From Enoplolaimus lenunculus (lineage: Eukaryota > Nematoda > Enoplea > Enoplida > Thoracostomopsidae), in NCBI GenBank assembly GCA_030248215.1, contig JASANG010001625.1, positions 82,733 through 146,732 on the forward strand: a stretch of DNA of 64,000 bases, written 5' to 3'. The translations under genes were made by a program, and so were the position numbers. This document shows positions 6,301-60,840 of the stretch, piece by piece. The notes below the pieces were generated by a model, which did no database searches, was not told where the DNA came from, and saw only the letters and a program-made list of their open reading frames with translations. Positions within the stretch are counted from its first letter, which is position 1; each line of letters opens with the position of its first letter.

Positions 6301-9300
6301 TCAGTGCGGCGCAGTTGTAGTGCAAATCGAACAATTGCATTCATGCTTTCTGCAGTAGCAATATGCTACATACATACTAGCAATATTCTACATTAAACGT
6401 ACCAATGCGATCCGGCGTTCGAGTGCAACTATTGCAATTGCAGTCTTCTTTGCCAAGTCAGCGTCTACTCCAAGATCTTTAAGAGTTTTCAATACCAGCG
6501 ATACGTACTGGGCTCGTTCCTCGGCACCGTCGTCAGTTTCGTAAATGGTTCTTGCTTTTAGGGCCAGAATAGGTTCAGAAATCTAGAAAAATATATAACA
6601 ACAGATTTATGATCTTATTGGTTCGAAAGTTTCAAGACCTAGCACCAACTGGTAATGACTGCTTTTTGCATTTCAAGTTGCCTAAACGCAATGCAAATCT
6701 GTATTCTGCGTAGAATAATGCATTAAAACTAGCCGATGGAAACCAGGAAATCATTTCATAACTGGCTATACATAGAGGGCCGAAGCCAGCTCAAAATGCT
6801 AAAAGGAAAAGAAAAAATTCAAGAAGAGCATGCTCGAATTTGGCATCACTTACAAGTTGGGTTTAAACTTCTATCTATAGAGGGGTGACAAAGTTTGTTA
6901 AAGGAGATGTGCACCCTATATCTCCCTCCAGCTTCTAATCTAGACAAATGCTGGATACATTTGACCATACGGTACTACTTACCACAAACGCATAAATACT
7001 CGAATTTTTGTCGTCAGGATTAACCATAGTTCGAAACAAATAATTCGGCTGTTCCTCTATAGGTTGTCCCTGGTTAAGGGTCAGGTGCGCCATTAGCCAT
7101 TCAATTGAAACTGGCTTTGAAGGATCTGATTGTCCACTGGTACGGCGTCTTCTTAGCGTCGTTGCCATTTTTGCCCATTTTGTATCAGACAGAACTGGCC
7201 AAGGAACTAGACGAAGCATTTTGAGAAAATACTGCTCCCAGCCGGACACAACCAGAGCTGAAAAAATTATTTTAAAATTCATTTGCAATTTAAAGGCTTT
7301 AACATTTAATTAAATTGAATAAGAACAGTGATAAATTTATGTTGGGTTTTAACACTAGGAACCTATTTTGAAACAGCGACATGAAAGTTAAATACACAAT
7401 ACGTAGCATTTAACTATTTCAGCTGCTATAGTTACACGAATAAGAGGAAGAGACTGATATTTATTTTGCCCATGCATTAGGTACATCCTGTTATCCGGTT
7501 ATGGACTGTTATTTATTTTAATTCACACCGTGTTTACTTGGACCGAACACCCTTCTATTTATATTTTTTTGGCCAAAGCTAAGCTGCTTCGAAGCATTTT
7601 TAATCGGCATGTACGTTAATCTTTTTCAGGATTTAATGGTTTATGCGAGTTGTATGAGTCTCTGTTCGATATTTCAGCAGTCTAGGCAACTCCTGTTTGG
7701 TCTGTTTTATGGAATAATTAAGACTTATAGACCCTATCCACTAACAGCCTTGGAATGCAAACTCCTATTGATTGGCACTCAAAATGGGGACGCCCTGTTA
7801 TTCGGGTCACTAAAGTATGCGTAATACAAAATTTTCAGGTCTGATAATAACCCACATTAACGCTCACTGGTCACCACTCTTCGAAGCAGAGATAGCAAGT
7901 GCCGACCATGCTATGACCCTGAGTTCAACCAATAGATTGAAATTAGACGCTTGGCAAAATCGGATATATTAATCAATTGGCTGTGTTAATAGTTTCGCCA
8001 CATAATTTTGATCAACTTACAATCGTTGATGCATGCTGAATAAAATGTTTTCGCTTTCTCTGTTGCTGAAAGCGAGTGCGGTTTTGGAGATGAAAATGTT
8101 GTAAAACGATTATGAGCCATATAATCTCTAACAGCCTCGTTATTTTCGAGCAGTTCTGAAATATTCGCGTAAATGTTTGCGTATATATCAATATATTACA
8201 TATTGGGTGTAAAAATCAAACGATGCAGAGGTCGCAATATTTTTTGATTTAAACATAAAAATAAGTGAAAATTGTGATATGAAGCATGCAAGTTTTGTAC
8301 AAGTTGCATACAATTTGGAACTATAGTTATATTTTTAAATGTCCTTTCCTCTCAAGACTGAAGTTTGTATCTCTTTTGTTTAAATCGATCTTGATGGTAC
8401 AGTCGGTTGATTTTGTGTTTGGATAAACACGCTTTGGAAGCATAGCTTATCCTGGTTAATATAATAAGTTTTAGCAGATTTCCAAACAATAGAAGAACGC
8501 TACTAACATTTTCAACACGCAATTCCATTTTCAACAGCGATCAAGAATGTCAGAAACAAGTTTATTTCAAAACGTTTAAAAACTGCTAATTGGTGCTACA
8601 CACATCTGACAATTGCTTAGGCTTAGGCTTAGGCTTAGGCTTAGGCTTAGGCTTAGTAAACGACTTTAATTCTTACCTTTGAGAGCATAATTGAGCTTTT
8701 CGTGAACGTTTCCAAACGCCGAAACACTACCAAGTCCATCGGGAATGTGATTTTCGCGGAGCCATCCACCACAGGCGTAAGTATAGAAGTCATCACAAGG
8801 ATCAACTGATGTATCAATTGATTGCAAAATGTCGCTTGCTGAAGTAAAAAATGTAGCTTGATTGAAGAGACTGTACTTAGTTTATTTTAACTTACAAAAG
8901 TTATATATACGTACATATCTATGTGTATATATCAGGGTGCAGCCGCGCAGTTCCTGTGTTTGTCGGAATTCCTAGAAAAATCCAATTCCTGTTCCAGTTG
9001 CTGTTCGTCATTTTTGACCTGTAACGCTCTAAATAAGATTCAGTTTTCTTAAATAAGTAACGCTCGAGTACTTAAAATTTACACTGACTTTACTAAACAA
9101 ATTCATTTTAACAAATGAATGCCAGTTTTGACCAGTGGAATAACAAGGATATCATAGTTTTGCTTTATAGCTGAAGATACCTTGAATCTGTAATATCAGT
9201 TTTACAACGCTAGTATTCCAAACTTCAAAGTGTCTGAAATTAAATGCGTTCATTGGTTTAAGTATTCACTTGAATAAGCAAACGTTTCGCTCTCCAAACT

Positions 9301-12300
9301 TTTCAGAAATAAACAAATTATTTCCAGAAAGCATATTGTAGTAAGAAAAATTTATTTTAGCAGGGCCCAAACTTTTTAGTGTGGAAAATATTTTTAAGCA
9401 GAGCGAATCCATGAGTCTCTTTCCTTTCTTGGTTACAGACTCGGATCGTCGAAGTATAAAACTTCATCATATGGGCCTGTGATATTCATTTATAACTCAC
9501 CTGTTTTGACGCATTCAGCTGTATGACAAATAAATTCATGTTTGGATTGTTTTGCTGAAACAAATGGTTTGTTTATGTCAGCTTCAAAACGAGGCAGCGT
9601 TTTGGTTGCATACGCAATAGATACACATACGAGTGAAACATATCACCACTCGTTCACAACTTCATGTTCGGTGGGCATAAGAACGTGTAAAAGTTGGTTG
9701 CGAACGAACGCAGCGAGCGATGAAAAGTTTTGACATATTGTATCCAGAAAATTATTGAAAAAGGCTGTTAATCAAATTGTGTTTATACCTGATGAATGAG
9801 CTTTCGCTGGCATATGTTACTTTACTTATACAACTTCCACAATAACATGCGTACACCAGGTGGGGGTAGTGTCATGAACTTTAAAGCCAAAAAAACTTCG
9901 GTATCCTGAACGTTGAAGCCAAAAAGCTTCAGTGTGAAAGCTGCTCAAGCAAAAAATGCTTCAGCGTCCATGACACTACCCCCTGAAAAGTCACCTGGTG
10001 TACGCATGTTAGTGTGGAAGTAGCATTAATACCAATTTTACACGCCGAAAATCTCTATAAAGACCCAATAAACTAATTGAGTTTGTTTAGAAAGCAAAAA
10101 TATAAGCAATAGAATCGTTTCTGACCAAAGGCTCTGAAACATTCATCAGGACTGAATTCAGAGAATAATTTAAGACGGGTTCACTGGCGGGGATTAGCAG
10201 AAAATACCGAATATATAGAAATGCAAAACAGTTTCTACGCTAGAACGATTAAAACTTGTCTACATTTTACCATGTTCAACGTACGAATTCTATTAAGTAC
10301 AAAATAAAACACATGGAAGTTTTGTTTTCGTAATAAGCAACTTGAATGCAAGTATTACAGCACAGAGCGATATCGCACGCACTCAACTGATACCGTCCGA
10401 GTCGAGGTATTCGACCAACAATAAATACAACTTAAAATGTAAGAAAAATCAGATTTGAACACAAAACGTGAACTTACAATAAAATATATACATAGTCGTT
10501 AGCAGGAGTAAAATTAAAAATATAATAACACACAACAACAACATAATAATAATCCTGAGTCGACACGAAGACTTTGATCTGTCGCTGGAGTTTCGATGCT
10601 TTGGACCAATAGTTACCACAGTTGCAGTGTCGTTTAAGCGATTACCGGCTGCTGCCGGCAGGTAAGGCGGGTCTTCGGTTCCGTTTAGGGGCCTGAAACA
10701 AAATTTTAAAAATGTATTACTGATTAATGGAGGTTGCAGACTTATCACTTGAATCGACCTTCGAATAATGTAAATTTTAGACTAGTCAAACTATAGGGTT
10801 ATGTCTAAAGCTTAGATATTAATGCGTAGTTTCTGTATGAGATATTTAGTTTAGCACAAAACTCAGATTGCGAAAATTAACACAGGTTAGGGGCAAAATG
10901 AATTTGCCGGCGCAGAAATATTCAATGTAAAACTCTGACGAATTAAGTGAAAGCTGAAAATCATAGTAAAGTCTTGACTAATAAACATCAAAACTTAATT
11001 TAGTTCTTGTTCCTGCAACCCAGCCAAAGACGTCGTATAATTGTCATTTTGCACTGGTTAATTTTAAAACGTTGGAAATATCTGTCTTCACAAATTTTGC
11101 AACATTTGCAAGTAAAAATCAGTGGCGTAACGTTTTTCGGCAGGACTACAATAGAGTAAGCTTACGCTTTACACTAATTTTTTGCGTACACTTAGGCTTA
11201 GGCTTAGGTGTAACCTCATTCTTACGCTTAGGCTGAGGCCTAGGCGTCGGCTTAGGCTTTAGCAACACCCTTCTACTACTGTTACGGCCCTGTTCAATAC
11301 ATGAGCCGCATCTGTTAACAACAATCTTAGTTTTAAGCGCCAGCTTAATCTCCTGTAGTGCTTTTTATAACTGTTAGCTTTGAAGTCCACCGTGATAACC
11401 ACCGAAGTACACGCTGCCCGAGAAATCTGTTGCGAACGAAGTTAATATTATCACATATGCGTGTGACGAGTATATATTTTCAAGACACACGCAATAAAAT
11501 ATTTCACTCACAGTTCCCCTCAAGGCTGCGCTGGCACAAAAAATCTGCCGTTCCATTTTGTTATAAATCGGACCGCCCACATTCATGTTACCAAAATAAT
11601 TACTTCACCAAGATTTTTTTATTTTGTTGACCGACTCAAATTCCATAAAAACTATTCTAAATTTAATATTATGAATTGACGTGGACTAAGTCATTACTTT
11701 CAAAGTACCTTCAATTAACAGCCCCATTCACACGCCCAAGTTTTTGCAGAATGATGTTTCAACCGCAACTTTTATTAATGGGTTTTAGATCAAATATTTC
11801 CTTGCGCAAAATTACAGTTGCGAGTTCTCGTAAAAACCTGCATATGTGATTATAGCTAAGATCTATTATATATTAACTGCGGAGAGACATTGTATTGGTG
11901 AACTAAAAAGGTCCTAAGAGAGATGCGCCTATTTGTCAAGGCTTACTTCGTTTCGGCCCCCATCTCAACTGCAGGTCCTGTCCGCCTCATATTTCCAAAT
12001 GGCATCATGTAAAACGCGGCTTTCGAATTCTTTTTCTCTGTTTTTCCGGTTCCAGCTGCCTGAGTAGATGCGCTAGCGCCTGCTGGAACGCTTATAAAGC
12101 TTTTAATCGCTTCAATTGAAGGTTGAAGTGAAAGTTTCGCAGAAATTTGAGCTCCTTTGCCCAAACGTTGAGTTGAAATAAAGCTGCGTTTACTCGTAGT
12201 TCGTGCATCTGATTGCAGTGTGAGCTGGGGTTGTGTGGCTGAATGGTTTGTTTGGATGCAATCGGGGCCAGTGCTGATTTCAAAGGTGTTGCTGACGGAG

Positions 12301-18309: not shown

Positions 18310-19662
18310 AACTTTGGGCAAAACTTCAAACAGGGGTGGCGGTGACCGTTAGTACCAGCAGGCCAGTGTTCTCAAATTTGGATAGCATCATACAAAAAAG
18401 ACTAATTGTAAAAAGGTACAGATGTCAAGCTCCATGCCGAAACTTTTGTTCCCCCTGTGCTGTTCGTTAGACCTAATACAACTTAATAAAATGAAAAATC
18501 ATTCAATTACAAAGGGTGAAATTAGTGATCGCAAGACGCAATATTCTTTTCTAGTGTTTTAGAGAGCTGGAAATTGTGTCGTGCAAATCGTTCGTTTGAA
18601 GCTCACAGTGGGATATACTTTGGATACTAATAAAATAATGACAACAAAAATAAAGCTATATTGTTCCATAGGTCCAATATGTAACTTTGCACAAATTTTG
18701 CTAACCATTGGATAAAAACTGCAAAATTTCAAAGCAAATAAGTATCTTACGCCACCAATAAATCGTTGATTCAACAATGTTATATACCTATGCTAACCAG
18801 TCGAAGTGGCAGGAGTGTACTGTTTCAAACTAGGCGAATATTATTCACTCGAGCAAAAAATGTAATTCTCGGTTCGCAAACCGGTATTTGGTATCCACTT
18901 GAAAGTTGTTTTGAGGAAAAAAGTCTTTTTAAAACTCATAAAAATGTGTATTCTTAACATACAGAACTGGTGAAAAATCGCCAGCTAATAATTTAAAAGG
19001 CATAAGTAACGTTATAGTTTAAACATGTTTCTAAACCTATATATCTAAGCCTAACCTTTAGAGTAAAAGATTGGTTTAAAAGTCTATGCCTACACTATTG
19101 CAGTCCACCGAAAACTGGGACGGCTTTGAAATTAACATAGGCTATAAAAACTAGTAGTTCCAGTATCAAGCAAACTAGAACAGTGCAAAATCTAAATATT
19201 TCAAAGCTTTTCGTATAAAGAAAAGATCAAAGAAAAATAAAAATATTCAGCAGTCTTGTATGGTTCAAGCGTACGTGGTTAGACAAGTAAAAGAGTTATT
19301 TAGTATGCTGTGTTTTCAAAGTATGTTTTGCTCCTGGTTAATTTTATAAAATCGGGCACAAAAACACTGTCCCAACTTTAGTGACCCAAAGCACCGAGCA
19401 AACAGGGGGCAAGGGGGCACCCCTGCCGATAACCAAAATTTTGTACTTGTTTAACCAAACCAGCTAATCGCTCTCTGTACAAATTTTAGAAAATACAGGC
19501 TTTCTTATATTGCGCCTTGGAATGTTTTGGCAATCATTTCAGAAATATCACTGAAAAACTTAATAACTAATTTGATTATTTTTTACTGTTTATGTTTAGT
19601 TTTGACTCAATTGTAAATAAAGGTATCCGACAACTATTCAAGAAACTCCTTTATTTATGTAT

Positions 19663-19737: not shown

Positions 19738-20399
19738 CGTTTTTGTTTCTGATTCGAATTAGTAGCTATAAAAATTGACTGACTTTCGCGACCACATACG
19801 AGATTAAAATACAGACTTTTACCATTGACATGATTCTGTAATTGCGCAAAATAGTTTTAAAGAACATAGTCGTATGGAGAAATGAAGGCGCTTCAAGCCT
19901 GATGATAAACCATATGGTTCTGCCTGCCACCGTTTGAGAAATAAAATTTTCTTAGCAAAGTAGTTTAAAAAAGCATGTTCAAAAAATAAGTAATATAAGT
20001 TTCTGAAATTCGTTCCAATTAATATGTTTTGTTGGCTGCTATGGACCCAAGTTTTAAAAATCGTACTACGTTTGGTTAAAATTTAACTAAGTAGGCATTC
20101 TATAAAAATACCCACCCTTTATGAAGTAGCATTATCAATGCGGTTTGGGGCCTAATTAAATGACATCAAATAGTTTACAGCAAACAAAGACCGAAACGAA
20201 ACCACTGTACAATGTATAAAAGCTCAGATGTTGAATTTTAATTGTGGTTAATTTAATTTTGCTTGCATATAAAACTTGGAAATATATCCGAAACGCAGAC
20301 CACAACAAGGAATTGTTATACTAGACGGTGCATGGGAGGAAGCAAGAAATTTTTTCCGGCCGCCCATGTAATGATCAAGGGCGGAAAGATTTTCTGCAG

Positions 20400-20545
20400 G
20401 AAAATACTTGAGCAAGCCTAACCTTTAGACTATTTTTTGTTTAAACGTAGGCTTAGGCTGTGGTATATGCTTATTCTTGTGCTTAGGCTTAGATTTAGGC
20501 TTACAAATGTGCTGCTGCTACTGTAACGGCACTGTTCTGTGCATT
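20400..20545. mobile_element. Family C MITE (TTAGGC core), copy 3
   Basis: gcctaacctttagactattt, taggcttaggctgtgg, gcttaggcttagatttagg, then tgctgctactgtaacggcac and tgttctgtgcattggccc. The right end fits the family; the left end is unclear. Confidence 0.55.
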
Positions 20546-20585
20546 GGCCCATTTGAAACAAGGTAAACCTTAGTAAGGTATTTAC

Positions 20586-26281: not shown

Positions 26282-26488
26282 CGGCTGTGCCAATACAAGG
26301 TGGGATAGGGAAAAGTAGCGCCCTAAACTTTCCTGATCCAAAAATAATACCGGCTGTGCCAATACAAGGTGGGATATGGAAAAGTAGCGCCCTAAACTTT
26401 CCTGATCCAAAAATAATACCGGCTGTGCCAATACAAGGTGGGATAGGGAAAAGTAGCGCCCTAAACTTTCCTGATCCAAAAATAATAC
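26282..26488. repeat. Minisatellite, 69 bp x 3
   Basis: Three near-identical 69-bp units start at 26282, 26351 and 26420 (each begins cggctgtgccaatacaaggt); one unit has tatgg where the others have taggg. 69 is a multiple of three, so frames on both strands stay open through it; this looks incidental. It directly abuts the family F element. Confidence 0.95.
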
Positions 26489-26499
26489 CATCATGGCTG

Positions 26500-28030
26500 C
26501 TTGACATCAAACACCATTTTTCCCGCTCGCTTCGATCGATTGCAAAAAACTTCTGCACAAAGTTAAAGGTGCTGTACACTACACAAAGTGAAATCTTCGT
26601 TATACCAATGATATATGTATAACTGTATATATACATATATAGGTATATTCATGTATTGCGACGAATTTGATGCTCACCACCGTTACCCATTTATAAATTG
26701 AAAAAACCCCGTAAAATCCGTTTGGGGCTGTTTCTTACGAGGGACACCAGTGTCATATTATTGTTGCTTCGGGGCACACCTGGTTGAAGTTTTGAAGAGG
26801 GCGGATGAGAATCTCAAAGCCAAATATGTTTTAGTAGCTTTGAGAAGACATATATTCACTTCATTAAAAAACCAGATATATATACTTACACAAAAGCTGC
26901 TAAGTTTTAAGGTTTTGTTCACATCTTGGATTTCGTACTCGATAACTTCACGGTTCAGTTTTCATGAAAATTGATGATACGAATATTTTCAGATTACATT
27001 ATCTTACAAGTTCTCGAAAGTTCCAGTGCACAGTTTTTTTTCGAATTTAACAATTTAAACCAATGCTGATTTTTTAAACAATATTGGCCCAACCTAACGT
27101 GTTGCTCAGATCATGGCAGTATTAACTCGAAAGCCTACGCTTACAAGTTTAATGACAACCGAGAAATATTGCCTCCCGTAATTTTTGAATATTTTGATTT
27201 TAAAAATTAAAAAAATTACCTTTTCCGCAATGCGATACCGTTCCGAAATCAAACTTTTCGCTACTCTTCGGGCTTTATTGGTAAAGTTTGTCCACTTTAT
27301 GAAATGACATTTGTACACTCAGAGGGCAGCAAAAACTTGTACTTTAGCAAATACCTCAACTCTCTGATATAGGACGTTGGAACTATTAGCATTATTCACG
27401 ATTAATGGCGTGTGAACTTTGTATTAACGCCGCAAAATGAGTAAAATAAAACATATTTCGTGAAAGTGTAAATACAGCTTGGGTGCCTATGTTATTTTTA
27501 GGTGTGACTTGATTTGAAGCGAGACTAAATTTAAGTAGGCTTGGACTTTAGAAATTTAAACTAATTTTAATGCTTAAATCTTAGAGCTTAGACTTGAGAC
27601 TTATCGTTTGATTTGAGGCTTATTTTGAAGAATTAAGCTTAAGCTTTAGGTAAAACTAAACTTTTTACGCTGAAGTTTAGGCTTAGACCATTGTTGTGGC
27701 ATGCCTCTGTTTCAAAAATATTTCTTTGTTTCAACAAATTTGTCTGAGTATGAAGATTCCAGGTTCTGCAGCTACGTGGGCAATTAATATATTTAACGTA
27801 ATTCAGTCCCAATTATTGCGGTTTTACGAGTTTTAGTAATATATAGTAAATTGCGAGACTAGAATCACTTCAGGCTTTTAATACTATCGATCTTTGATTT
27901 GTTTGTTAAAATTGTTATTGTTCGCTACACCTTTAACATTAGCGCTTAAGCTTAGACTCAGAGTTGGGATTAAAAACGGTTTAAAGTAAACAACTTTTGG
28001 GGCCGTCCCGTTTTCTCGCATGACTGCAAT
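26500..28030. other. No convincing gene; degenerate TTAGGC-like words
   Basis: A short frame at about 26780 (HLVEVLKRADENLKAK) faintly resembles the connection region of LTR-retroelement reverse transcriptase but is isolated. From 27510 to 27690 run many ctta(a/g)(a/g)ctt words, a decayed family C-like core. Confidence 0.35.
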
Positions 28031-28039
28031 ATGCTAAAA

Positions 28040-28140
28040 CTAGAGTTTGGACTAAACCTTTGCTTAGACTTAGGCTTACTTAGGCTTCATTACGCTTATG
28101 TTTAGGCTTTGCGCTAAAAGTAACATTGGCCAAAGATATT
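28040..28140. mobile_element. Family C remnant
   Basis: cttagacttaggcttactta, ggcttcattacgcttatg and taacattggcca at the right end match the family's core and terminus; the left end is degraded. Confidence 0.45.
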
Positions 28141-28542: not shown

Positions 28543-28752
28543 GGCCAATGTAAAGAACAGGGGCTGAACAGTGTTATGAGCATATTCCTAAGCCTAAAGC
28601 CTAAGCCTAATCCTAAGCCTAAGCGTAAGAATGAGCATATTCTTAAGCCTAAGCCTAAGCCTAAGTCTAAGCAAAAAATTAGTCTAGAGCTTAAGCTTAC
28701 TCTATTCTAGTCCTACATTATAAACTTTCCGCCCCTGATCTTTACATGGGCC
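28543..28752. mobile_element. Family C MITE (TTAGGC core), best-preserved copy
   Basis: Left end ggccaatgtaaagaacaggg; right end, read inverted, ggcccatgtaaagatcaggg: a 20+ bp terminal inverted repeat. The core holds two runs of (GCCTAA)-type units (cctaagcctaagcctaag) separated by gcgtaagaatgagcatattc, then gcaaaaaattagtctagagc. No coding capacity. Confidence 0.8.
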
Positions 28753-29122
28753 TGCTAAACGAATATAAAACCTGTAAGTACCGACAAATTTGGATTGATG
28801 GGGTACAAGTCCGAAAAAGCGATTAAAATATTGGTTTTAATATGGCATGGCATTGGTAAATCGCTACGAATGTTCACAGTGAGACCGAGTTAATAAGAAA
28901 TATCAATTTGTATTAGGATACTGCGATGCCCTCTGTAGCTCTCTTTTTGGTTATCTTCTTAAACCGATAACTTTTTCGCAAGATTTTGATCAGAGAACAG
29001 GTGGGTCGCAGCGGCGGATCCAAAATCAACGAGCCTCCCATGTGAAGCTGCAATCTGTAATGAATGACGCAAAAGGGTTCGGAAAACGATCGAATTAGAA
29101 CTTTTGTGTTTTTGGCCAATTT

Positions 29123-29281
29123 ACAGAACACGGCCGCAACAGTAGTAAATGCATATTCCTAAGCCCAAGCGTAAACCTAAGCCAAGGTTTAAACGTAAGC
29201 ATAAGCAAAAAATTAGTCTAAAGTTTTATGCTTATTCCAATCCCGTAGAAAAACATTCCGCCGCTACCTTTACATGGACCG
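29123..29281. mobile_element. Family C MITE (TTAGGC core)
   Basis: aacacggccgcaacagtagt, cctaagcccaagcgtaaac, gcaaaaaattagtctaaag, then cgctacctttacatggaccg at the right. Same order as the 28.5 kb copy. Confidence 0.65.
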
Positions 29282-29289
29282 TATATTTT

Positions 29290-31790
29290 ATAAGATATTC
29301 GCTTCAATTTTGTAGTTCGAATGCAAAATTTTCTGACCGCAAAAATGTGAAACACCCCCTCCATGACCCCCAACTGCAGCGCCATTGCTGAAGCTTCAGT
29401 GAAATTTGCGAGTAATCACATTGCCTCAGCTGACATATTTCTGAATTAAACTTTTTCAACCCCAGTGGGATTCCTTAGCGCCCTGGTTTACCTTTTATTT
29501 AGCTCTACGCAGTTGTACTCATGACAGAACCTATTGGGCATAAACCTATGGCGATCGTTGAGTGCACGTAAACGTGACAGTTTTACAGGAATTTCCGAAA
29601 CCTTCCGGTACGATAATTCAAATATAAGCCTCAGTAACTTTTGCATCGCGTTGTTAAAAACTTGGTTGGACAGCAAACATGGACTAATTTGGCCACGCAG
29701 AATAAATAAATATTCTAAAATGATGGAGTCGTAGAAAGTAAACAAAACTCCGAATAGATCTTAATCGAAGGGTTAATATATTAAGACCCGAGATTGCAAC
29801 AGCTTTACACGGATCCGCCAAGTTGTGGCGATCGAGAAGCTGTGAACTAAAAGAATTTTTTAATTGTATGAAGTGATTGCATATACAAACTGGTATGCCT
29901 TTATAAACAATGACAAAGTTGAAAGAGAAGCGATAGAAGATGCGGAAGCTAGCTAAACGTCGTCCTAAGTACAATATTCCTTCATTTAGAACTTCAGTAA
30001 AAGCCATGAATGCAGTGGCGGAACGAGGATTTTTGGGGGTGGGGAGTGGCGGAAGCAGTGGCGATTAACCATATCCAGTCTACTGGCAGTTAATATATAG
30101 TTGTGAATAAGTGACGAAAGTCTCGCGAACGAGAAGCTAGCATTTTATTGGATTTATTAATACAAGGAAATGTTTTGTATTAGCGTATGTCCGGAGGGTG
30201 AATCGATTGTTATAATCTTGTATTTGCATCATAGGTAACATATAAACAGCGCCGCAAGCGAAAATTTTAGGCGTATCAGCGCCAGACACTTTTATAAATA
30301 TAACTATCAATGCTATGTCATTGTCAGACGGAATAGAGGGCGGTTGCTCTCTTTCACCCCCCGCCCCCCTTGTGCAGGAATATTTGAACTGTTGTCCATG
30401 GCTGAAACCCCAGAAAATAATTTCTCACAACAATACAGGCACTACATAAAAGCACTATACCATCTATTTTATATCAAATGATAAGCATTGTACTAGAATA
30501 AAACACTCACTAAACTATAGAATGTATAGAGCTATCTCATCACCAAATTAAAGTCTGAGCCAATCTAATATTTTTTATCTCGGAAAATTACCTAGCTACC
30601 ATTTATGCTCTCACTAGACAACATAGTATTTTTGTGATTAATAAACTTTGATATATGGTCATCTACTTGTATAAACCCGGGCTCTCACTTTAAAGAGAAG
30701 ACATAGAGATTTCTTAAATAAAACTACAGGTAAAAATTTTCAGAATTGTACGTCAAATACAATTTAATTCCGTCTGCAGCAGCCCCTGAAAATCGGGGGA
30801 AACAGGCATGACAAGAGTATACCTTTGATCTGGTACGATTATTACTAACAATCATTTGTATTACTATTTACAGGTTCTACAGTTTGGTATAAAAACGAAA
30901 ATTAGTGATTTTACTTAATGAAAAAGTTGAAAACAAACAAAGGTAAATGGTGACAGTTTCCTATAATTAGCAAACTTCTAAAAGTTTTTAACTGGAAAAC
31001 TGGTTGAGCAAAATTGCCAACCTGATTCTCCGGTTTGGTTTAGCCTCAATGTCAATCAACTGTAACGCTATCAAACTTTACCGTGGCTTTTCAAGCCAAT
31101 GGTACATCTGTGCTGAGTATGCTTTACAGTATTCCTGACAGCAGAGGGATAGTTTTTCTGCTTTCATCTTGTGAAAAATTGAGAATTTCTGAAGTATTCG
31201 TGCGTCCCGAAATGTGACAAACGAGCAATACAAGTTTCTGTTGTTTTGAAAAATTAAACAGAGTGTCTCTGGCTGAGGACAGCTGCAAGTGTACATCCGA
31301 TATGATCAACACAACAGAACAGACAAAGCCTTTTCGACGAAAATGATTACTTCTGACGCGGTGGTGACAGTGAGAAATGTTAATTAAAAGTCGGCGGCCA
31401 GTGGTTTTAGCCACTGCCATATAAGCATTCTTGTTTTTTGATGTAACACAGTACAACGGGGCATTAGAACGTTTCAGCTATTAGCCAAGGTATGACAATT
31501 TAATTTGTCGCGCGTGTAGGCAAAGGGGGCAAGCAGGATTCACCCGTTCCAACAAGAATTTGACTTCTTGATAATTTTTAGCTATTTTTGGAAGCCATAA
31601 CATTCACGTATATATTTCGCCGGAATGTTTTGTGCTTCCTCATAGCATGATGAAGAGGTAACGCTCCTTGTAACCTGTTCCACTGATTTGCAACCGAAAA
31701 ACTAGTTATGTTTCGGTATGACAAGAGATACTTTCAATATGTGTTTTTACGCGTTTTAGTGTAAACTTAGTAGATTATAAAGAGTACATA
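29290..31790. other. No convincing gene; one family A trace
   Basis: Long-ish frames overlap on both strands at 29.5-30.0 kb but lack matching splice sites or recognisable domains. A family A-like start (gtgtaggcaaagggggcaag) is at about 31513. Elsewhere nothing identifiable. Confidence 0.35.
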
Positions 31791-31793
31791 GCT

Positions 31794-32166
31794 ACTAGGG
31801 TACAACCGGGGGTCTACTTCCGGCTCCGGCAGAATATCATGTTGTGGCTTCGGCTGTCGTAAGAATTCTGTCGCAGGATCCGGCAATTTCTGTTGTGAAA
31901 TTTTTCGTAGTTTAACAAAATTTGTATTGTTCGGTGCGTTATGATTTAACTTTCGTTTAATTTTTTACAGTTTAATTGTTGTGAATTATTAAAAACAAGC
32001 CTAAATCCAAAATTATTAACAGCACTTAGCACTTTGCAGATATTTGCTTCAGTTAGCCAATCAAACATTGCTTTAACTACATAATTTCACTTACCATGGG
32101 CTCCGGTTTAGGCAAATTTTGTTGCCCTCTGGCTCCGGTATTTTCACCCCCGGTTGCACCCTGATA
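31794..32166. mobile_element. Family E MITE, copy 1
   Basis: Left end agggtacaaccgggggtcta; right end ccccggttgcaccctgatag, inverted to each other. The inside repeats ggctccgg/tccggcag words. About 370 bp. Confidence 0.7.
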
Positions 32167-32481
32167 GCTACATATAGTGGATGGTCTGAAAACAGAGGTC
32201 TGTATGCGGTTCCGGTACAAAATCAACATCTGGTCGATGTTCTGGTACTATTTACGCTGGAGGTTATCTGCTAGTTCGGTAACAAAAACCTTTTACCGTT
32301 CAAATTATTTTGATCAATGATTTATATTAATTTTGAGATTTTTAATTTTTATTTGCTGGAGTTTGTACACAAATAATATCTTATTAGCAATTATTGACAA
32401 ACGCTTAATAGAATATATACTACTAGAATTTGCAGCTCATGTTTATGACGGAGGCCTGTCCACTGAGAAACGAGGACACTG

Positions 32482-32725
32482 CACTGTAAATCCCGGTGAA
32501 TCAATTTTAATTCAGAACGAGTTGAAGCACTGAGTTTGAATTAAGTCTTTCGGAAGTGAGAATTCTGAATTGATTAAAATCATTCTGAATTAAATTTATA
32601 TATTCGCAATTAACAAAACCAACTCAGGGTGAGTTAACGTTTGCTGTTATTAATTCAGAAATAACTAGCGACTAACACGGTCTCTGAGTCTGAGTTGATT
32701 AATTTACTCACTGGAATTTTACAGC
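32482..32725. mobile_element. Family G MITE, 244 bp
   Basis: Left cactgtaaatcccggtgaat, right (inverted) gctgtaaaattccagtgagt; similarity continues with AATTTTAATTCAG-type words. The interior is made of repeated TGAATTAA / TTAATTCA in both orientations. Confidence 0.7.
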
Positions 32726-32729
32726 ATGA

Positions 32730-33585
32730 AGGATTGAAGATTCTTGTTGACATACCCCGATTGTTTAAGCGAGTAAAATAAGCAATTTCGACATCATTAT
32801 AGCTACTTCTAAGCGTGTCATCGACACAGATTATTTTTTATGGCATTTTCGTGAATCCTATGATTAATTATAAGGACGACAGTAATTATTGCGTGCTTAC
32901 AATGATTGAGTATTTTAGTTTTCGAGCGAAATATACATAATTGGGAGGCAATAACAAGTCAAAGGTTGACGATATTAAGTCTGCAAATTTAACGCTAAAA
33001 GCTTAACGATTGTAAGTCGGGACTACGTAGAGAACAAAAAACCTTATATATTGAATATGAATTTACATCGTTGGGCATAAGCAATGCGAGGTAGAAAGTG
33101 ATTCAAAATGTTGTAAAGAAATTTCATGGTAGATCTTGGTTAAATAAATCAGGAAACGAGTGGCGAATGCAGGATTTTTCGATGAGAGCATGTTTTTTTG
33201 CATTTTGAAATTTTAAAACTTTTTCATGCGTTTTGGACAAACATTTCGGCCAGAATTCAACATGTAAGAATAAGAATTTAAGTCTATGATTGAATGTAAG
33301 TGGTTGCTAAAGATCAAACAAGTCTAGATCCCAGCGGACAATTTTGTGTCTCAGTGGCTGGGCTAATCGAATCGCACTTAAGCGTTTACTTAAGTTATAC
33401 ATTAGTAATTACTTAAGTCGCCGGCCTAGTACGTATATATTGAATACTTAACTTTTTTTACCAAAAACAAAAAGTAATTATATATAAACTTAGTTTAAGT
33501 ACGCTTTTAAAAACGGCCAAATGGTAAAGCAATTAATTACAAACATTACTTAAGTACGAAGTTGTACTTAGAGTAAGTAGGGTTT
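32730..33585. other. No gene; acttaag-rich stretch
   Basis: At 33365-33590 the word acttaag / cttaagt occurs about eight times in both orientations, suggesting another decayed foldback element. No termini could be fixed. Confidence 0.35.
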
Positions 33586-33588
33586 TAG

Positions 33589-33721
33589 GGCCCATGTATA
33601 GAACAGGGCCGGAACAGTAGTATAAGCATATTCAAACCTAAGCAAAAAATAGTCTAAAGCTGAAACTGTCTCTATTATAGCCCCTCCGGAAAACGATCCA
33701 TCCCTGTTCTATACATGGGCC
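33589..33721. mobile_element. Family C MITE, 133-bp short form
   Basis: Ends ggcccatgtatagaacaggg and the exact reverse complement ccctgttctatacatgggcc: a perfect 20-bp terminal inverted repeat. The TTAGGC core is reduced to caaacctaagcaaaaaatag. This short copy defines the family's ends. Confidence 0.85.
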
Positions 33722-34245
33722 GGTTTCAGAAGCCCAGCTAATGTTGGATGAACAGATTGGGCCTACGTAAGCAAAACTACCTTTTGGTAATAAGATCAAA
33801 ATACTGACAGTTCTGGGATTTTTGTAAAAAACTTTTTAACTGCTGAAACTAGTTCTAGGCCCATTCTTGTGTTTTTATATGGTCAACGAGACTGCCGTCG
33901 AAACAATCGGCTATAAAAGGTATATGCCTTTCGAAATTTTTACTAGATGAGAATGATATTTGGTATTAATGGCGTATATTTGTAGATGGCATGGGATGGG
34001 GAGAATATACGTATTGTTTTCCGAAATTTCTGAAGACACTACTGAAACTTTTTTACAAGCACAAGAATAAGTGCTCGATTTTAAATGTGAAAAAATATTT
34101 TTTCCAATGAAATAGTTTTCGCTTTCGTATTTCTGGGTTTTAAAAGGTTCTATGAATTATTAACGTACTGTATCCTAGGGGCCAAATTTTTGACCGCTTG
34201 GTAAATTTCAGCTTTCAAAAATATTTCTTTCGTGATACAAACAAC

Positions 34246-34446
34246 GGCCCATGTTACTTTTATTGCCGCCCCGGTTTCTGGTGGATCTCTAAAAGAGTAG
34301 GCATACATTCTAGACTACATTTTTGCTCAGTCTTAGGTATATGCTTAGGCTTAGGCTTAGGAATACACTTTTGCAACGCTTAGGCCTAGACGTAGGCTTA
34401 GGAATACGCTTAATGGACTGCTACGGTCCTAAAAGTAACATTGGCC
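34246..34446. mobile_element. Family C MITE (TTAGGC core)
   Basis: Left ggcccatgttacttttattg, right cctaaaagtaacattggcc, inverted repeats of about 18 bp; core taggcttaggcttaggaat and gcctagacgtaggcttagga. A subfamily with ggcccatgttactttt ends, as at 37.7 kb. Confidence 0.75.
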
Positions 34447-34748
34447 TAAACAACTATCGACCTCCCGAAATATTAAAATCCTGACCGCATCTCTAAATGA
34501 GACCTTTGGAAGAAAGCTTATTAGTTTTGATAATGTGCTCTACCAAACTGTTGCCGAAACGGACGGGAAACAGAAAGCCAAACAGATCTACACGAGGGAA
34601 ATCGAAAAACCAACGATGTAAAGAACATTATATTTAATTAACCTTTGAGAGTCAACAAGTAGGTAATATAACTGATTTCTGATATTTTAAAACCTGCAAT
34701 GCACAAGGGATTGGGTGATGCATTCTGCATGCATCAACCATTGCTTAT

Positions 34749-35145
34749 CAGGGTACAATCGGAGGTCTGTCTCCTGCTCCGGCTACGGCAGAAAATCAAC
34801 CTCCGGCTTTAATTCCGGTGGAATTTTTTCCGGAGGTTCTGGTAATCTCAGGAGTGAAATTTTGCATAGTTTTACAAAATTTTATCTGTATGGCGCGTTT
34901 TGTTTAACCCTTTGGCAGAATTTGGCGCGTTTCGTTTTAACGTTTGCAGAATTTTGAAAAAAATTGCCGAGATTTTGTACAAAATAAGCGTGAAACCAAA
35001 CAATTTAACACCACATTACAGATATTTGGTAAAATTAACAAATTAAACACCATTTCAACTACCGAATTTTACCTCACCCACGGCTTCCCTTCCCGCTGCT
35101 GCATCGGCGTCGGCATTTTCACCTCCGTTTGCACCCTGATACATA
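34749..35145. mobile_element. Family E MITE, copy 2
   Basis: Left atcagggtacaatcggaggt, right cacctccgtttgcaccctga. The interior matches the 31.8 kb copy (ctccggctacggcag; gaaattttgcatagttttac). Confidence 0.7.
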
Positions 35146-35339
35146 TCACTCTCAATATAGACTAGGATTGTTTGTTCAATACCTTTGTGTGCAACGCCAA
35201 TAACCATCTGTGTGCAATTCTCACGTTTGCAGCACCTATTACCAGTTGATAACTCGAACAACTGTTGCTCTAAAAACGGTGAGTATAAAAATTTAGAACC
35301 ATTGTTTCCGGTTTGCAAACATCGGCTACGCCTCTAAAC

Positions 35340-35810
35340 TTTTTCTACCAACCAAAAGGAATCATACCTACGCTTGAACTTTCCACTTTTTCACTTTTCC
35401 GGTTTTCCGAACAGAACCACGTATCCCAATTTTTCAGACAAACCATGTTCCTTCCCTGCCAGACATTGAGAAAGTCTATACGTTTTCTTTTCCACTTTTC
35501 CCGTTTGCCGGAATTCGCATACACCTACAACTTTCCCTACAAACCCAAAGGAATCGAATACGTACGCTTGAATTTTACACTTTTGCACTTTACTCGTTTT
35601 CCAAACCGAACCACCCATCCCAATTTTTCAGACAAAGTAACCAAATCATTCCTATCTTGCCACACCTAAAGAAACAATATACGTTTAACTTTTCCACTTT
35701 TCCAGGTTTCCGGAACTCGCATAAACTTCTAAGTTTACCTACCAAACTGGAAATATTCAGGTGTCTGAATATTCCACTTTTCTAGTTTTCCCAGCCAAAA
35801 TAATTCTTGT
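35340..35810 (+). repeat. Tandem array of ~195 bp diverged units
   Basis: The phrase accaacc/caaaccc-aaaggaatc followed by acgcttgaa(c/t)ttt(c/a)cac and a 'ccgttttcc(g/a)aac' segment starts near 35346 and again near 35539; a third partial unit starts near 35738. About 2.4 units. A 118-codon frame overlaps but is not supported as protein. Confidence 0.6.
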
Positions 35811-36245
35811 GATTTTTCCAGTCGCAATACAGGAGTGGCTGCGCTGCAATACTGGTCATAAGTTTTCCACGTTGCAAAATGGGAAGCACCTGTGCTACAC
35901 ATTGACCGCTTATGCTAATGCAAATGTCAGGGTAGTGGTATCAGTTCCCTGTCTACCCTCCGGCGCTGGCGCCGCGTTTGTTTCCTATTCCTCTCTAAAA
36001 TCAATCACATGAGTTAAATCATGCATCACAAGTTTGACACATTTTCATGGTATACACTATACAGCTTGAAGTATTTCCTATTTACCTATATACATGAAAC
36101 AACAAATATATAAACCAGTAAGTAAATCAGATTAGTAATCAACTTAATAAATAGAGTCAGTTTCCTGGCAAGACAAACCTGAATGCCTATACTTGATGCT
36201 AATTAGAATAAATGTAGGTAGGTAACCGTTGTAGTTTCGTTGCGT

Positions 36246-36620
36246 ACTGTAGTGACCCGAATACAGAGGGTGGAAACCATAAGAGGTAGACAAGGGTTTC
36301 CATATTGATTCCCAATACAATAGAAGCGTGTTAACGTCCATAAGTCATAAATGTTTAAATTAGAGTTTATAAATTAGAACAAAACAGAAAGGCATAGAGT
36401 GCTCAAAACAGACATACAGACAACCAGCAGAAACTTTATATAATCGAAAAAACATTAGCCGACATGACAAACAACAATAAATCCGAAGGAGAATGTAAAT
36501 TCTGATCAAAAGAAATATTTTTAAAAAAGAAGGATGTTGGATCCAACTATCATGACTTGAATTAAATATGAATAACAGTTCGTAACTGAATAACAGAAGG
36601 GCACCCACTGGAGAGGCAAC
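36246..36620 (-). mobile_element. Family B MITE, inverted copy
   Basis: Starts tactgtagtgacccgaatac; near the other end are aacagttcgtaactgaataa, cagaagggcacccactggag. The interior differs more than other copies. Between 36640 and 36760 gacag(c/a) words repeat (gcctggacagcagaaacag). Confidence 0.55.
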
Positions 36621-37232
36621 ATTAATATTTAAATCAATATAGCTGTCTTGACAGATATTGCTTAAAAATGTGGGTGAGTCGCCTGGACAGCAGAAACAGA
36701 AAGTCAGCCTGGACAGAAAGACCTCTCAAACAACCGGTACAGCAGGACAGCCGGGACAGACAAGTATGAAATCGTACATGAATAGGGTTATAGAAACCAG
36801 CTAATGGGTAAAGCAGGAGTTCGATTTGTACACGGATATTAAGAATAACGAAATTGATAATGATTAAAATAACGGAAACGGAAACAGAAAATGAATATTG
36901 AAGTATGAAAAATTCAAACATGTTTCATTTTTCTGTTAACACAATTGAAGCTTGCTAATATTTACCTTTGCTTTCTAAAATTTTAAAGAACAAATAGCGG
37001 ATGCATAAAAATTTTTATATTTGCATGAATTTTGTAATTTTTTATGTTGTATCGAACAATTGCAGTTAATTTGCAATGAAAAATGACGAGTTGTGTACGT
37101 GACCTATTGTTAATTTTGAGCATAAGGACAACAGAATTTCCGTATTTTGATAACGGAAACGGACACCGATTTCTACCGGAAATGGATATCTACTTACACC
37201 CTGCAGGAGTCTTTAAGCATTTTTGCTTACAG

Positions 37233-37327
37233 ATGCATTATTGTATGTTGTTGCGGGACAACCGGACCTGCATCAGCGTAACATGGGGCGCCCGATCAAA
37301 AATCGAAAACATGCAGAATATGCTACA
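37233..37327 (+). CDS. Candidate internal exon, unrecognised protein
   Basis: Preceded by a strong acceptor (catttttgcttacag) and followed by a possible donor (gctaca, then gtaaat). In phase 1 it encodes 31 codons, ALLYVVAGQPDLHQRN onward, basic at the C-terminal side. No partner exon was identified and the family is unknown. Confidence 0.25.
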
Positions 37328-37679
37328 GTAAATGAATGTCTCAGATCGCATAGAAGTTTTCAAACGAAATACGTATCGCTTTTATATTTGAATTGTGATT
37401 TCATTAGCGTACAATTTAAGGGATGGGTAAAATTAGGGCACTTGTACTAAATTTCTCTTACCAAGCTATCTCAACGCATAGCTTAAAGCCCATTTAATTT
37501 TTGGGAGCCGTGCTGCCAAAATGTTTGTTATAAGTTCAAACTAAAAGTATACGTTCCTACCTGGCTGGGTGCAGCCCGAGATCAGTTTATTACGTATTTT
37601 TATGTTCAAAAGTAGTTCTAAAATCGCTAAAAACCAAGCAATTTTAAAATATGTGCTACAATTGTTTGACAAAATTAAA

Positions 37680-37877
37680 GGCCAATGTTACTTTTAAGGT
37701 CGTAACAGTAAATTAAGCGTATTCCTAAGCCTAAACTTTAAAGCCTAAGCGTTGCAAAAGCGTATTCCTCAGCCTAAGCCTAAGGCTAAGCCTAAGCAAA
37801 AATGTAGTCTAAAATGTACGCCTACTTTTTTACAGACCCACCACTAACTGGGATGGCCCTAAAAAGTAACATGGGCC
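37680..37877. mobile_element. Family C MITE (TTAGGC core)
   Basis: Left ggccaatgttacttttaagg, right ccctaaaaagtaacatgggc: inverted repeats. Core of agcctaagc units split by cgttgcaaaagcgtattcc, then gcaaaaatgtagtctaaaat. Confidence 0.75.
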
Positions 37878-38898: not shown

Positions 38899-39092
38899 AG
38901 GCCCATTAAAAATCAGAGGCGGAACGTTGTTCTATGACGCCGGAACAGAGAAAAGCTTTTTAGGGTTTAGGTTAGGTATTGTATTTTTATAATAGAAAGC
39001 TCGTTTTTTACGCTTCGGCGTTAGGCTCGGTATAGGCTAAACCTTAGGTTTAGGAATATGCTTATACTGTTCCGACCCTGATAATATTGGCC
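38899..39092. mobile_element. Family C MITE
   Basis: Left ggcccattaaaaatcagagg, right ccgaccctgataatattggc. Interior tttagggtttaggttaggta and ggtataggctaaaccttagg: the core has drifted to TTTAGG/TTAGGT. Confidence 0.6.
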
Positions 39093-59267: not shown

Positions 59268-60840
59268 TTTTCATTGATTTTGGGGAATGAAGACATTTGA
59301 GAAACCATGCTTTTCGCGGACCTTTTTTTATACCGTCGGGACCCAGAAATTTAATTTAGGCGAGGGGATTATTTAGATATTTTTAAGTTTAAGGGTTGCG
59401 GTATACTTTGCTGTAGCGGACGCTGTACCAAAAATATAGGTAGAATTTATATATTTGGTGGCATGCGACCATTTTTAATAAAATTTGTCGTGGCGCACGG
59501 CGGTGCGCGGCGAGTACAGAACAACCCTAACTGTTCGTTTCGATATATTTAAGCGTTCATTTTGATTCTAATAAACTGTGAAGCTTATGAGATCACTGTG
59601 GTTATGTGTTGTTTCGTTTTTTGTTTACTTATATTTATGGTATTTAACTGTCAGCGTTTTATAGGTTAAACTAAATGAAAATGAAATTTTTCTAACAAAA
59701 GTTTTGATTGTGTTTTTGGAAGATGTTTCTTGTTTTAATGTAGAAACTTATATTGACAAAGAATTGCTGTGTAGCTTCATAAAATCAAACCTAACCACCG
59801 ATAAATTTTTATTTTGCTTTTAATGATCAGCGAATACAATACGGTCTCTGTTTAAAAGCTGGCGAAACTCAAAAACCGAGGCCGACATGAGCCAAATACC
59901 GAGATTTTTCGAGACCGAGACTATCAATCCTTTATGATTCGGCAGTTAAGTTATGAATATCTTAACGCGAATTTCCGTAGTGGCATATCTAACAATGATA
60001 GCATCTTTATATCCATCCGTTTTATCAGTTGTGTGTGGCACTTGTCATCAGTTAGCGATGGATTTCGAACATATTGAATGTAGTACTGAACCTTGTATTT
60101 CAAGAGTTGTCAAATAGATTTATTGTTCGCGAGTTATAGTAGAATCGTATCATTTGGGTAACGGTATTACACACATTTGAAAACGCTTCATTTTATGCGT
60201 GTTCGCATCCAGTAAAACGATATAATAATGAAATGCATGAATTAAATAACGTTGATCAATAGCGTTTATAATATAAATTGTCAACTTTTACAGTGTATAA
60301 TAGAGTAAAAAATATGGGTTTACCTAAAATAAAAAATGGGGTGTGTCGTTTGTTGGAGGCCTGTTTTTGAGCTGGTCGAACTTGCGATGAGTTGTGTTTG
60401 CTTAAATGCATGTATATTCTGAACTGACTTGCTTTTATTGTTTCCAGTTTGCACTAGGTTTCAAAAAAACGAGCGAACGTCATTTTATATCTTTAACGGG
60501 ATTCACTGTGTTGCAAAGGTGGCACATTTCAAGATCGGTTGGGAACGTTTTTCTGCAAAACTGCAATAAACAAATCTTGTCTAATTTATCTGATTAATGC
60601 GCTATCCAGGTTATACTGCGCTCGCCAATGTCAAAAAATGTACCACCATTTTTACATCTAGCTAATTTACGAACACTCTAAAAATAATGTCCAGAATTTT
60701 AGGTACACAAATGACCTACCAAATAATGCGACCGGACAAAAATAGTGTATAGAAAAACATCACCCCTTTAAAACACAGTGCAAATTGTACGGCGAATGAT
60801 TAGAAACTGCAGAGCTTAAAATTTTTTCTTAGTTTTTCAA
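59268..60840. other. Intergenic; family D fragment
   Basis: A family D fragment at about 59845-59930 includes cggtctctgtttaaaagctg and gagatttttcgagaccgaga. Otherwise no repeat or exon recognised. Confidence 0.45.

What the first reader, a model, noticed from the sequence alone, without database searches (positions are those of the whole stretch)
28543..37877. A short transposon family built around telomere-like TTAGGC units
At least eight 130-210 bp elements (3.2, 11.1, 20.4, 28.5, 29.1, 33.6, 34.2, 37.7, 38.9 kb) share ends of the type GGCC(C/A)ATGT...GAACAGGG and a core of TTAGGC/GCCTAA units. The 33.6 kb copy has a perfect 20-bp terminal inverted repeat but almost no core; the 28.5 kb copy has a full core. 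So the hexamer array is a variable internal part of a non-autonomous DNA element. TTAGGC is the nematode telomere repeat; the family could spread interstitial telomere-like DNA, or the match may be coincidental.
Basis: partly seen in the sequence, partly recalled or inferred. Interest (0 to 1): 0.75.

Follow-up and report, generated by a model that had tools for sequence, protein, structure and literature searches.

The report
Mobile elements carrying telomere-like DNA repeats
A roundworm genome is peppered with very short mobile DNA elements whose middle is made of the same six-letter repeat that caps roundworm chromosomes, which gives one concrete way for chromosome-end DNA to be scattered through the inside of chromosomes.

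Summary
The finding largely holds up. The window has nine copies of a dispersed short element (133-210 bp) with GGCC[C/A]ATGT-type termini and a core of TTAGGC/GCCTAA units. In 55 genome copies the flanks match best at exactly 8 bp (mean identity 0.81, against 0.24-0.37 at other lengths), and joined flanks restore an uninterrupted repeat at three sites. It is therefore a non-autonomous cut-and-paste element (MITE) with at least three subfamilies and thousands of copies or more. The hexamers point one way inside the element (53 of 55 copies; the other two have no exact hexamer). Core length runs from none to 65 and 78 perfect units, sometimes a 48-bp minisatellite. The genome is a nematode (116 cuticle-collagen matches), and TTAGGC is the canonical nematode telomere repeat in print. 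The elements do not explain everything: 7 of 14 hexamer clusters in the window and 9 of 13 perfect arrays inspected lie outside recognisable copies. An 8-bp duplication, GG-termini and a resident Merlin-type end matching 11 of 15 bases suggest Merlin transposases; an autonomous partner with the same ends was not found. I rate it a new variant of a known kind: a tandem-repeat-bearing MITE whose repeat is telomeric.

The parts
28543..28752 (+). Full element, 210 bp, long subfamily (A): termini GGCCAATGTAAAGAACAGGG / GGCCCATGTAAAGATCAGGG (18 of 20 identical), two hexamer blocks
   Evidence: flanks TTGCTAAC/TGCTAAAC, at best 6 of 8 with a 1-bp shift
28586..28670 (-). TTAGGC/GCCTAA core of the 28.5 kb copy: two blocks split by a non-telomeric spacer
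33589..33721 (+). Full element, 133 bp, short subfamily (B), perfect 20-bp terminal inverted repeat, target duplication GGTTTTAG/GGTTTCAG (7 of 8), almost no hexamer core
29114..29280 (+). Element with degenerate core (no exact hexamer), flanks GTGTTTTT/GTATATTT (6 of 8)
34246..34446 (-). Element of subfamily C (termini GGCC[C/A]ATGTTACTTTTA), hexamer core, flanks AAACAACG/AAACAACT (7 of 8 with a shifted border)
37680..37877 (+). Element of subfamily C, TIR 18 of 20 identical, flanks AAATTAAA/AAAATAAA (7 of 8)
38900..39092 (-). Degenerate element
20362..20549 (-). Element, subfamily A-like, hexamer core; no target duplication recognised
11110..11307 (-). Element, subfamily A/B-like, one good terminus, hexamer core of 11.5 copies by Tandem Repeats Finder
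3217..3371 (-). Element with one recognisable terminus
27993..28131 (-).
19066..19142 (+). Right-arm remnant of an element
60521..60578 (-). Right-arm remnant of an element
8615..8656 (+). Free-standing perfect (TTAGGC)7 run with no element ends: an interstitial telomere-like tract outside the family

Best explanation
The elements are a family of miniature, non-autonomous cut-and-paste DNA transposons (MITEs). Shown: conserved GGCC...GGCC termini with inverted repeats, an 8-bp target-site duplication, three empty sites, a non-random target site, at least three subfamilies with different inner ends but a similar core plan, and a TTAGGC-hexamer core that is fixed in orientation and variable in length. 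Inferred: a transposase in trans, most likely of the Merlin/IS1595 superfamily, recognises the termini and moves everything between them. Each transposition therefore plants a short run of telomere-type repeats inside a chromosome. After insertion or between rounds, the run shrinks to nothing, grows to dozens of perfect units, or turns into a larger minisatellite (48-bp units), most simply by replication slippage and unequal exchange. The family is thus one source of interstitial telomere sequence in this genome, not the only one.
For: Flank identity peaks at exactly 8 bp: 0.811 mean, 18 of 55 perfect, against 0.236-0.366 at 2-7 and 9-12 bp. Of 60 loci, 3 were too short to use and 2 lacked definable ends; L034 and L035 share flanks, so they are probably one insertion, and L001 and L031 are window copies. 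44 of 55 have at least 6 of 8 identical; the site is AT-rich, with T at 69% two bases outside it when both sides are pooled. Joined flanks restore an uninterrupted sequence at three of 55 sites: L053 inside another copy of the same family (E 2e-31), L049 and L043 inside other repeats (two weak profile hits, L038 and L057, E about 6e-5, not counted). Consensus: long 207 bp, short 143 bp; subfamily C from 16 sequences, 4 of which were dropped before its profile was built. Core orientation: 53 of 55 copies carry GCCTAA on the consensus strand, 2 have neither, none has TTAGGC. Expanded cores: 78 perfect units inside a 573-bp element with flanks AAACGTCC/AATCGTCC, and 65 perfect units inside a 604-bp element with flanks AGAACAGG/AGAACAGG. 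A 48-bp minisatellite of 17.8 units lies between two element arms. Genome-wide: 4,286 right-arm/hexamer junctions at up to 3 mismatches, reversed-pattern control 0; 132 left junctions followed by 6 perfect units, control 0. Enrichment: 7 of 14 (window) and 56 of 69 (flanks) hexamer clusters lie within 60 bp of an element, against 5.4% and 12.4% of bases. Merlin-type transposase domains are present (15 PF12762 matches). A Merlin-like family with two 98.9% identical copies ends in GGCAAAGGTACGGAA, 11 of 15 bases shared with GGCCAATGTAAAGAA.
Against: No autonomous element with the same ends was found. Five of 15 PF12762 places were looked at (L091, L092, L104, L105, and the two flanks only of the C1711 place, L106/L107), within roughly 0.4-1.2 kb on each side. 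None has paired GGCC[C/A]ATG ends; single 10-base matches with up to 2 mismatches do occur. The 11-of-15 end match is the best of five element-end variants compared (the others 10, 9, 7, 6), and that transposon's other end is not recognisable. 9 of 13 perfect arrays inspected have no element ends, including three of the five arrays of 33 or more units; one of these three has an element end 115 bp away. In the window only 25 of 63 exact hexamers lie in the nine elements. The real telomere of this species was not seen at a contig end. No transposition was observed; even the best copies are on average 6.7% diverged from consensus in the arms, so activity may be past.
Confidence: 0.82

Rival explanations
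1. The core is a TTAGGC-like minisatellite by coincidence and has no historical or functional tie to telomeres.
For: The core has a non-telomeric spacer and degenerate units; some copies have no exact hexamer. Core expansion also makes 48-bp units that no telomerase would write. The species telomere was not seen directly.
Against: The repeat is exactly the canonical nematode telomere hexamer (PMC10767889) in a nematode. Two cores are 65 and 78 perfect units, and all three subfamilies keep it.
Confidence: 0.15
2. The telomere tracts came first, by telomerase-assisted repair of breaks, and the elements merely inserted into or beside them.
For: Free-standing perfect arrays with abrupt borders exist (window 8615-8656; 9 of 13 arrays inspected).
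Against: Inside elements the array sits between the same arms in the same orientation in every aligned copy that has a hexamer, and target duplications lie outside the arms, not outside the array.
Confidence: 0.05
3. The elements are moved by another superfamily with 8-bp target duplications (hAT, MULE) and not by Merlin.
For: 8-bp duplications are also listed for hAT-like MITEs (table in PMC4405373). No Merlin element with the same ends was found here. Transposases of hAT or MULE type were not searched for.
Against: hAT ends usually start with CA/TA rather than GG (recalled). A resident Merlin-like element ends in GGCAAAGGTACGGAA.
Confidence: 0.35
4. Long perfect arrays inside elements are written by telomerase acting on breaks in the core (or on excised elements), not by slippage.
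For: Arrays of 65 and 78 units without a single change inside copies whose other core parts are degenerate.
Against: Slippage can also give perfect young arrays. The 48-bp minisatellite shows that non-telomeric units expand in the same place.
Confidence: 0.2

Closest known systems
Tandem-repeat-carrying MITEs: bivalve pearl family/DTC84 (passages of PMC5139131), insect MITEs with hitchhiking (GTCY)n microsatellites (Coates et al. 2011) and Xenopus Xstir MITE (Hikosaka and Kawahara 2004), the last two seen only as table and reference entries in PMC6947457
   Same: Short non-autonomous element carrying an internal tandem array that can seed larger arrays
   Different: Here the internal array is the canonical telomere hexamer of the host's phylum, and single copies reach 65 and 78 perfect units
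Merlin-like MITEs (Nosema table: 8-bp TSD, TIR 24-34 bp; PMC4405373 passage)
   Same: 8-bp target duplication, inverted repeats of about 20 bp or more, GG start shared with a resident Merlin-type element
   Different: No autonomous partner with the same ends found; telomeric core
Interstitial telomere sequence (ITS) tracts of C. elegans (review PMC9071541, passages)
   Same: Degenerate TTAGGC tracts dispersed inside nematode chromosomes
   Different: There their abundance is called a mystery; here a large share of tracts sits inside a defined mobile element. I have a vague recollection of a C. elegans inverted-repeat family (Cele14) linked to telomere-like hexamers; a search for the name listed 3 papers, none opened, so a precedent is not excluded

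Membership tests
MITE (non-autonomous cut-and-paste element) | Terminal inverted repeats conserved between copies | tested here: met
MITE (non-autonomous cut-and-paste element) | Fixed-length target-site duplication | tested here: met
   8 bp; (0.811 mean identity at 8, 18 of 55 perfect)
MITE (non-autonomous cut-and-paste element) | Empty sites / insertion into other repeats | tested here: met
   L053, L049, L043 of 55 joined flanks
MITE (non-autonomous cut-and-paste element) | High copy number and short length | tested here: met
   129-219 bp in the aligned copies; at least 4,286 junction matches
Merlin superfamily | 8-9 bp target duplication and ends starting GG (recalled definition; 8 bp for Merlin-like MITEs in PMC4405373) | tested here: met
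Merlin superfamily | Autonomous partner encoding an IS1595/ISXO2-type DDE transposase with the same ends | tested here: inconclusive
   15 PF12762 matches; 5 of 15 places inspected, none with the same paired ends; one end 11 of 15 similar
hAT | 8-bp target duplication | tested here: met
   shared with Merlin, so not diagnostic
hAT | Ends of the type C/T-A-G (recalled) | tested here: not met
   ends are GGCC[C/A]ATGT
Interstitial telomere sequence | Tandem copies of the species telomere repeat inside a chromosome | tested here: met
   arrays lie well inside contigs (lengths); the repeat is canonical for nematodes, own chromosome ends not seen
Interstitial telomere sequence | Bound by telomere proteins or used as telomere seed | not testable with these tools
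   needs ChIP or genetics

The most novel reading that the evidence does not exclude
The elements act as mobile telomere seeds. Their cores are maintained, and in some copies freshly written, by the telomere machinery (telomerase or telomere recombination) and dock telomere-binding proteins. Transposition thus distributes telomere-like sites that can template chromosome healing or internal telomere-protein sites, and is a main origin of interstitial telomere tracts in this nematode.
Probability: 0.18. Interest if true: 0.85.

Novelty: new variant of a known kind. Interest (0 to 1): 0.55.

Why it matters
[quoted passage not shown] Here a defined transposable family carries such tracts, bears the marks of an 8-bp-duplicating transposase, and has copies in which the tract has grown to dozens of perfect units. 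That makes one origin of the tracts directly testable by presence/absence of insertions. Nine of the 13 perfect arrays inspected still need another explanation.

Tried and rejected
Coincidental tandem DNA without an element: rejected by TSDs and empty sites. Element as the sole source of TTAGGC runs: rejected (9 of 13 perfect arrays free). A second family at 15.4, 52.3 and 56.9 kb with CCCACAC-type ends and TTAGGC-like cores: seen by eye; the 56.9 kb copy finds 12 places including itself, mostly partial. I left it as a side note. Species identity: nematode by 116 PF01484 (Col_cuticle_N) matches, none in 14 control genomes; that this domain is nematode-specific is recalled, and the make-up of the control set is not known to me. 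ArfGAP and reverse-transcriptase protein searches did not name the species, nor did the PF12762 ORF. Genome-wide copy number by extrapolation (11 arm clusters in 64 kb, scaled to 296 Mb, about 5e4) is only an order of magnitude. The junction pattern matches none of the window's nine copies at up to 3 mismatches and gave 17 hits in the central regions of 58 loci, so it is an undercount. Papers: the full-text searches listed no title that reports a telomere-repeat-cored MITE, and none of the passages opened does; most listed papers were not opened. The library holds only openly licensed papers; two wanted papers (Satovic and Plohl 2013; Frenk et al. 2019) are not held. The 3 papers listed for Cele14 were not opened.
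Full report
Observation. The window is contig C623, bases 82,733-146,732, of a 296-Mb assembly in 3,185 contigs. The 33.6 kb copy has a perfect 20-bp inverted repeat and no exact hexamer; the 28.5 kb copy has seven. The double hexamer TTAGGCTTAGGC with up to one mismatch occurs 33 times against 0.26 expected.

What it is. Two genome searches returned 30 loci each; 40 candidates were scored of 747 and 40 of 2,330. Of the 60 loci, three were too short to use and two had no definable second end, leaving 55. Their flanks agree at exactly 8 bp (mean identity 0.811, 18 of 55 perfect) and at no other length between 2 and 12 bp (0.236-0.366). The 44 better duplications are AT-rich, and with both sides pooled (so symmetric by construction) the surroundings resemble GTTA-N8-TAAC. 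Removing the element and one duplicate restores an uninterrupted sequence at three of 55 places, one of them another copy of the same family. These are the marks of a cut-and-paste element; at 129-219 bp it is a MITE.

Subfamilies. A (207-bp consensus, GGCCAATGTAAAGAACAGGGGCGG end, two hexamer blocks split by GCGTAAGAATGAGCATATT) and B (143 bp, GGCCCATGTATAGAACAGGGCC ends, one short block) come. C (GGCCAATGTTACTTTTAGGGGCG end, two blocks) comes and includes the window copies at 34.2 and 37.7 kb; the 34.2 kb copy has 4,003 first-look candidates genome-wide, of which 40 were scored and matched. Arms diverge 6.7% from consensus on average in A and in B. These are the best-matching copies, so the family at large is more diverged.

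The core. GCCTAA reads on the consensus strand in 53 of 55 copies; two short ones have no exact hexamer, and none has TTAGGC. Block lengths differ between copies mostly in steps of six. Two copies have grown to 65 and 78 perfect units, making 604-bp and 573-bp elements with flank matches of 8 of 8 and 7 of 8. Another has a 48-bp minisatellite of 17.8 units (15 perfect) between element arms; its flanks TCAAAATT/GTCTGTAC show no duplication. Genome-wide, 132 places have the left junction followed by six perfect units, and the reversed control has none.

Share of telomere-like DNA explained. In the window 7 of 14 hexamer clusters, and in the flanks of fetched loci 56 of 69, lie within 60 bp of an element, a zone covering 5.4% and 12.4% of bases. 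The flanks were fetched because an element is near, so the second figure is biased. I looked one by one at the 13 distinct perfect arrays among the rows that searches listed; both lists were cut after about 100 rows, in contig order. Four lie in elements: two with both ends and 65 and 78 units, one with both ends and 6 units, one with a single end. Nine stand free, one of them 115 bp from an element end. Hence the family spreads such tracts but is not their only source.

Organism. 116 matches to the cuticle-collagen domain PF01484, none in 14 control genomes, make it a nematode (the domain's restriction to nematodes is recalled). TTAGGC is called the canonical nematode telomere repeat (PMC10767889, passage). 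The genus is open; canonical SL1 was not found. A link to programmed DNA elimination, known in Ascaris (PMC9894435, passages), would be attractive but nothing here tests it.

Mechanism. Shown: marks of transposition, a non-random target, fixed orientation, core length differences. Inferred: a transposase in trans. The genome has 15 matches to the IS1595/Merlin transposase domain. I looked at five places. Two copies of one family are 98.9% identical over 1,178 bp and end in GGCAAAGGTACGGAA, 11 of 15 like the element's GGCCAATGTAAAGAA and 10, 9, 7 and 6 of 15 like four other end variants. Their other end is not recognisable, and no autonomous copy with paired GGCC[C/A]ATG ends was found. hAT and MULE transposases were not searched for. 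I put Merlin at roughly 0.6.

Known or new. MITEs with internal tandem repeats are known in bivalves, insects and Xenopus (passages and table entries). Nine topical full-text searches listed no title on such an element with a telomeric core; most listed papers were not opened, the library is partial, and a half-remembered C. elegans precedent (Cele14) could not be checked. I therefore call it a new variant of a known kind. It bears on a question that a review calls a mystery, the abundance of interstitial telomere tracts.

Noticed in passing
window 15402-15478, 52278-52316, 56836-56963: A second, rarer family with CCCACAC-type ends and a degenerate TTAGGC-like core, grouped by eye; the 56.9 kb copy has 12 matches genome-wide including itself, mostly partial.
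   Followed up: partly
L091:473-1995 and L106/L107: IS1595-type transposase ORF (329 aa in L091) followed by an ORF with a weak DUF3987 match (E 9e-4, below the Pfam cut-off) and a GPSGFGKT motif; the flanks of the C1711 place read alike.
   Followed up: partly
L104:695-1872, L105:673-1849: Merlin-like family, two copies 98.9% identical, left side of the similarity ending at the same point in both.
   Followed up: partly
L041:762-1202, L057:603-820: Minisatellites with 30-bp units that contain TTAGGC (14.6 and 7.3 copies), without a complete element around them.
   Followed up: partly
window 26282-26489: 69-bp tandem repeat, three copies at 98% match.
   Followed up: no
window 42158-42559 and 49254-49607: A reverse-transcriptase fragment (RVT_1) and an ArfGAP exon.
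   Followed up: no
whole assembly G000: No exact match to the canonical nematode SL1 spliced leader (recalled 22-mer) in a genome with 116 cuticle-collagen domains.
   Followed up: partly
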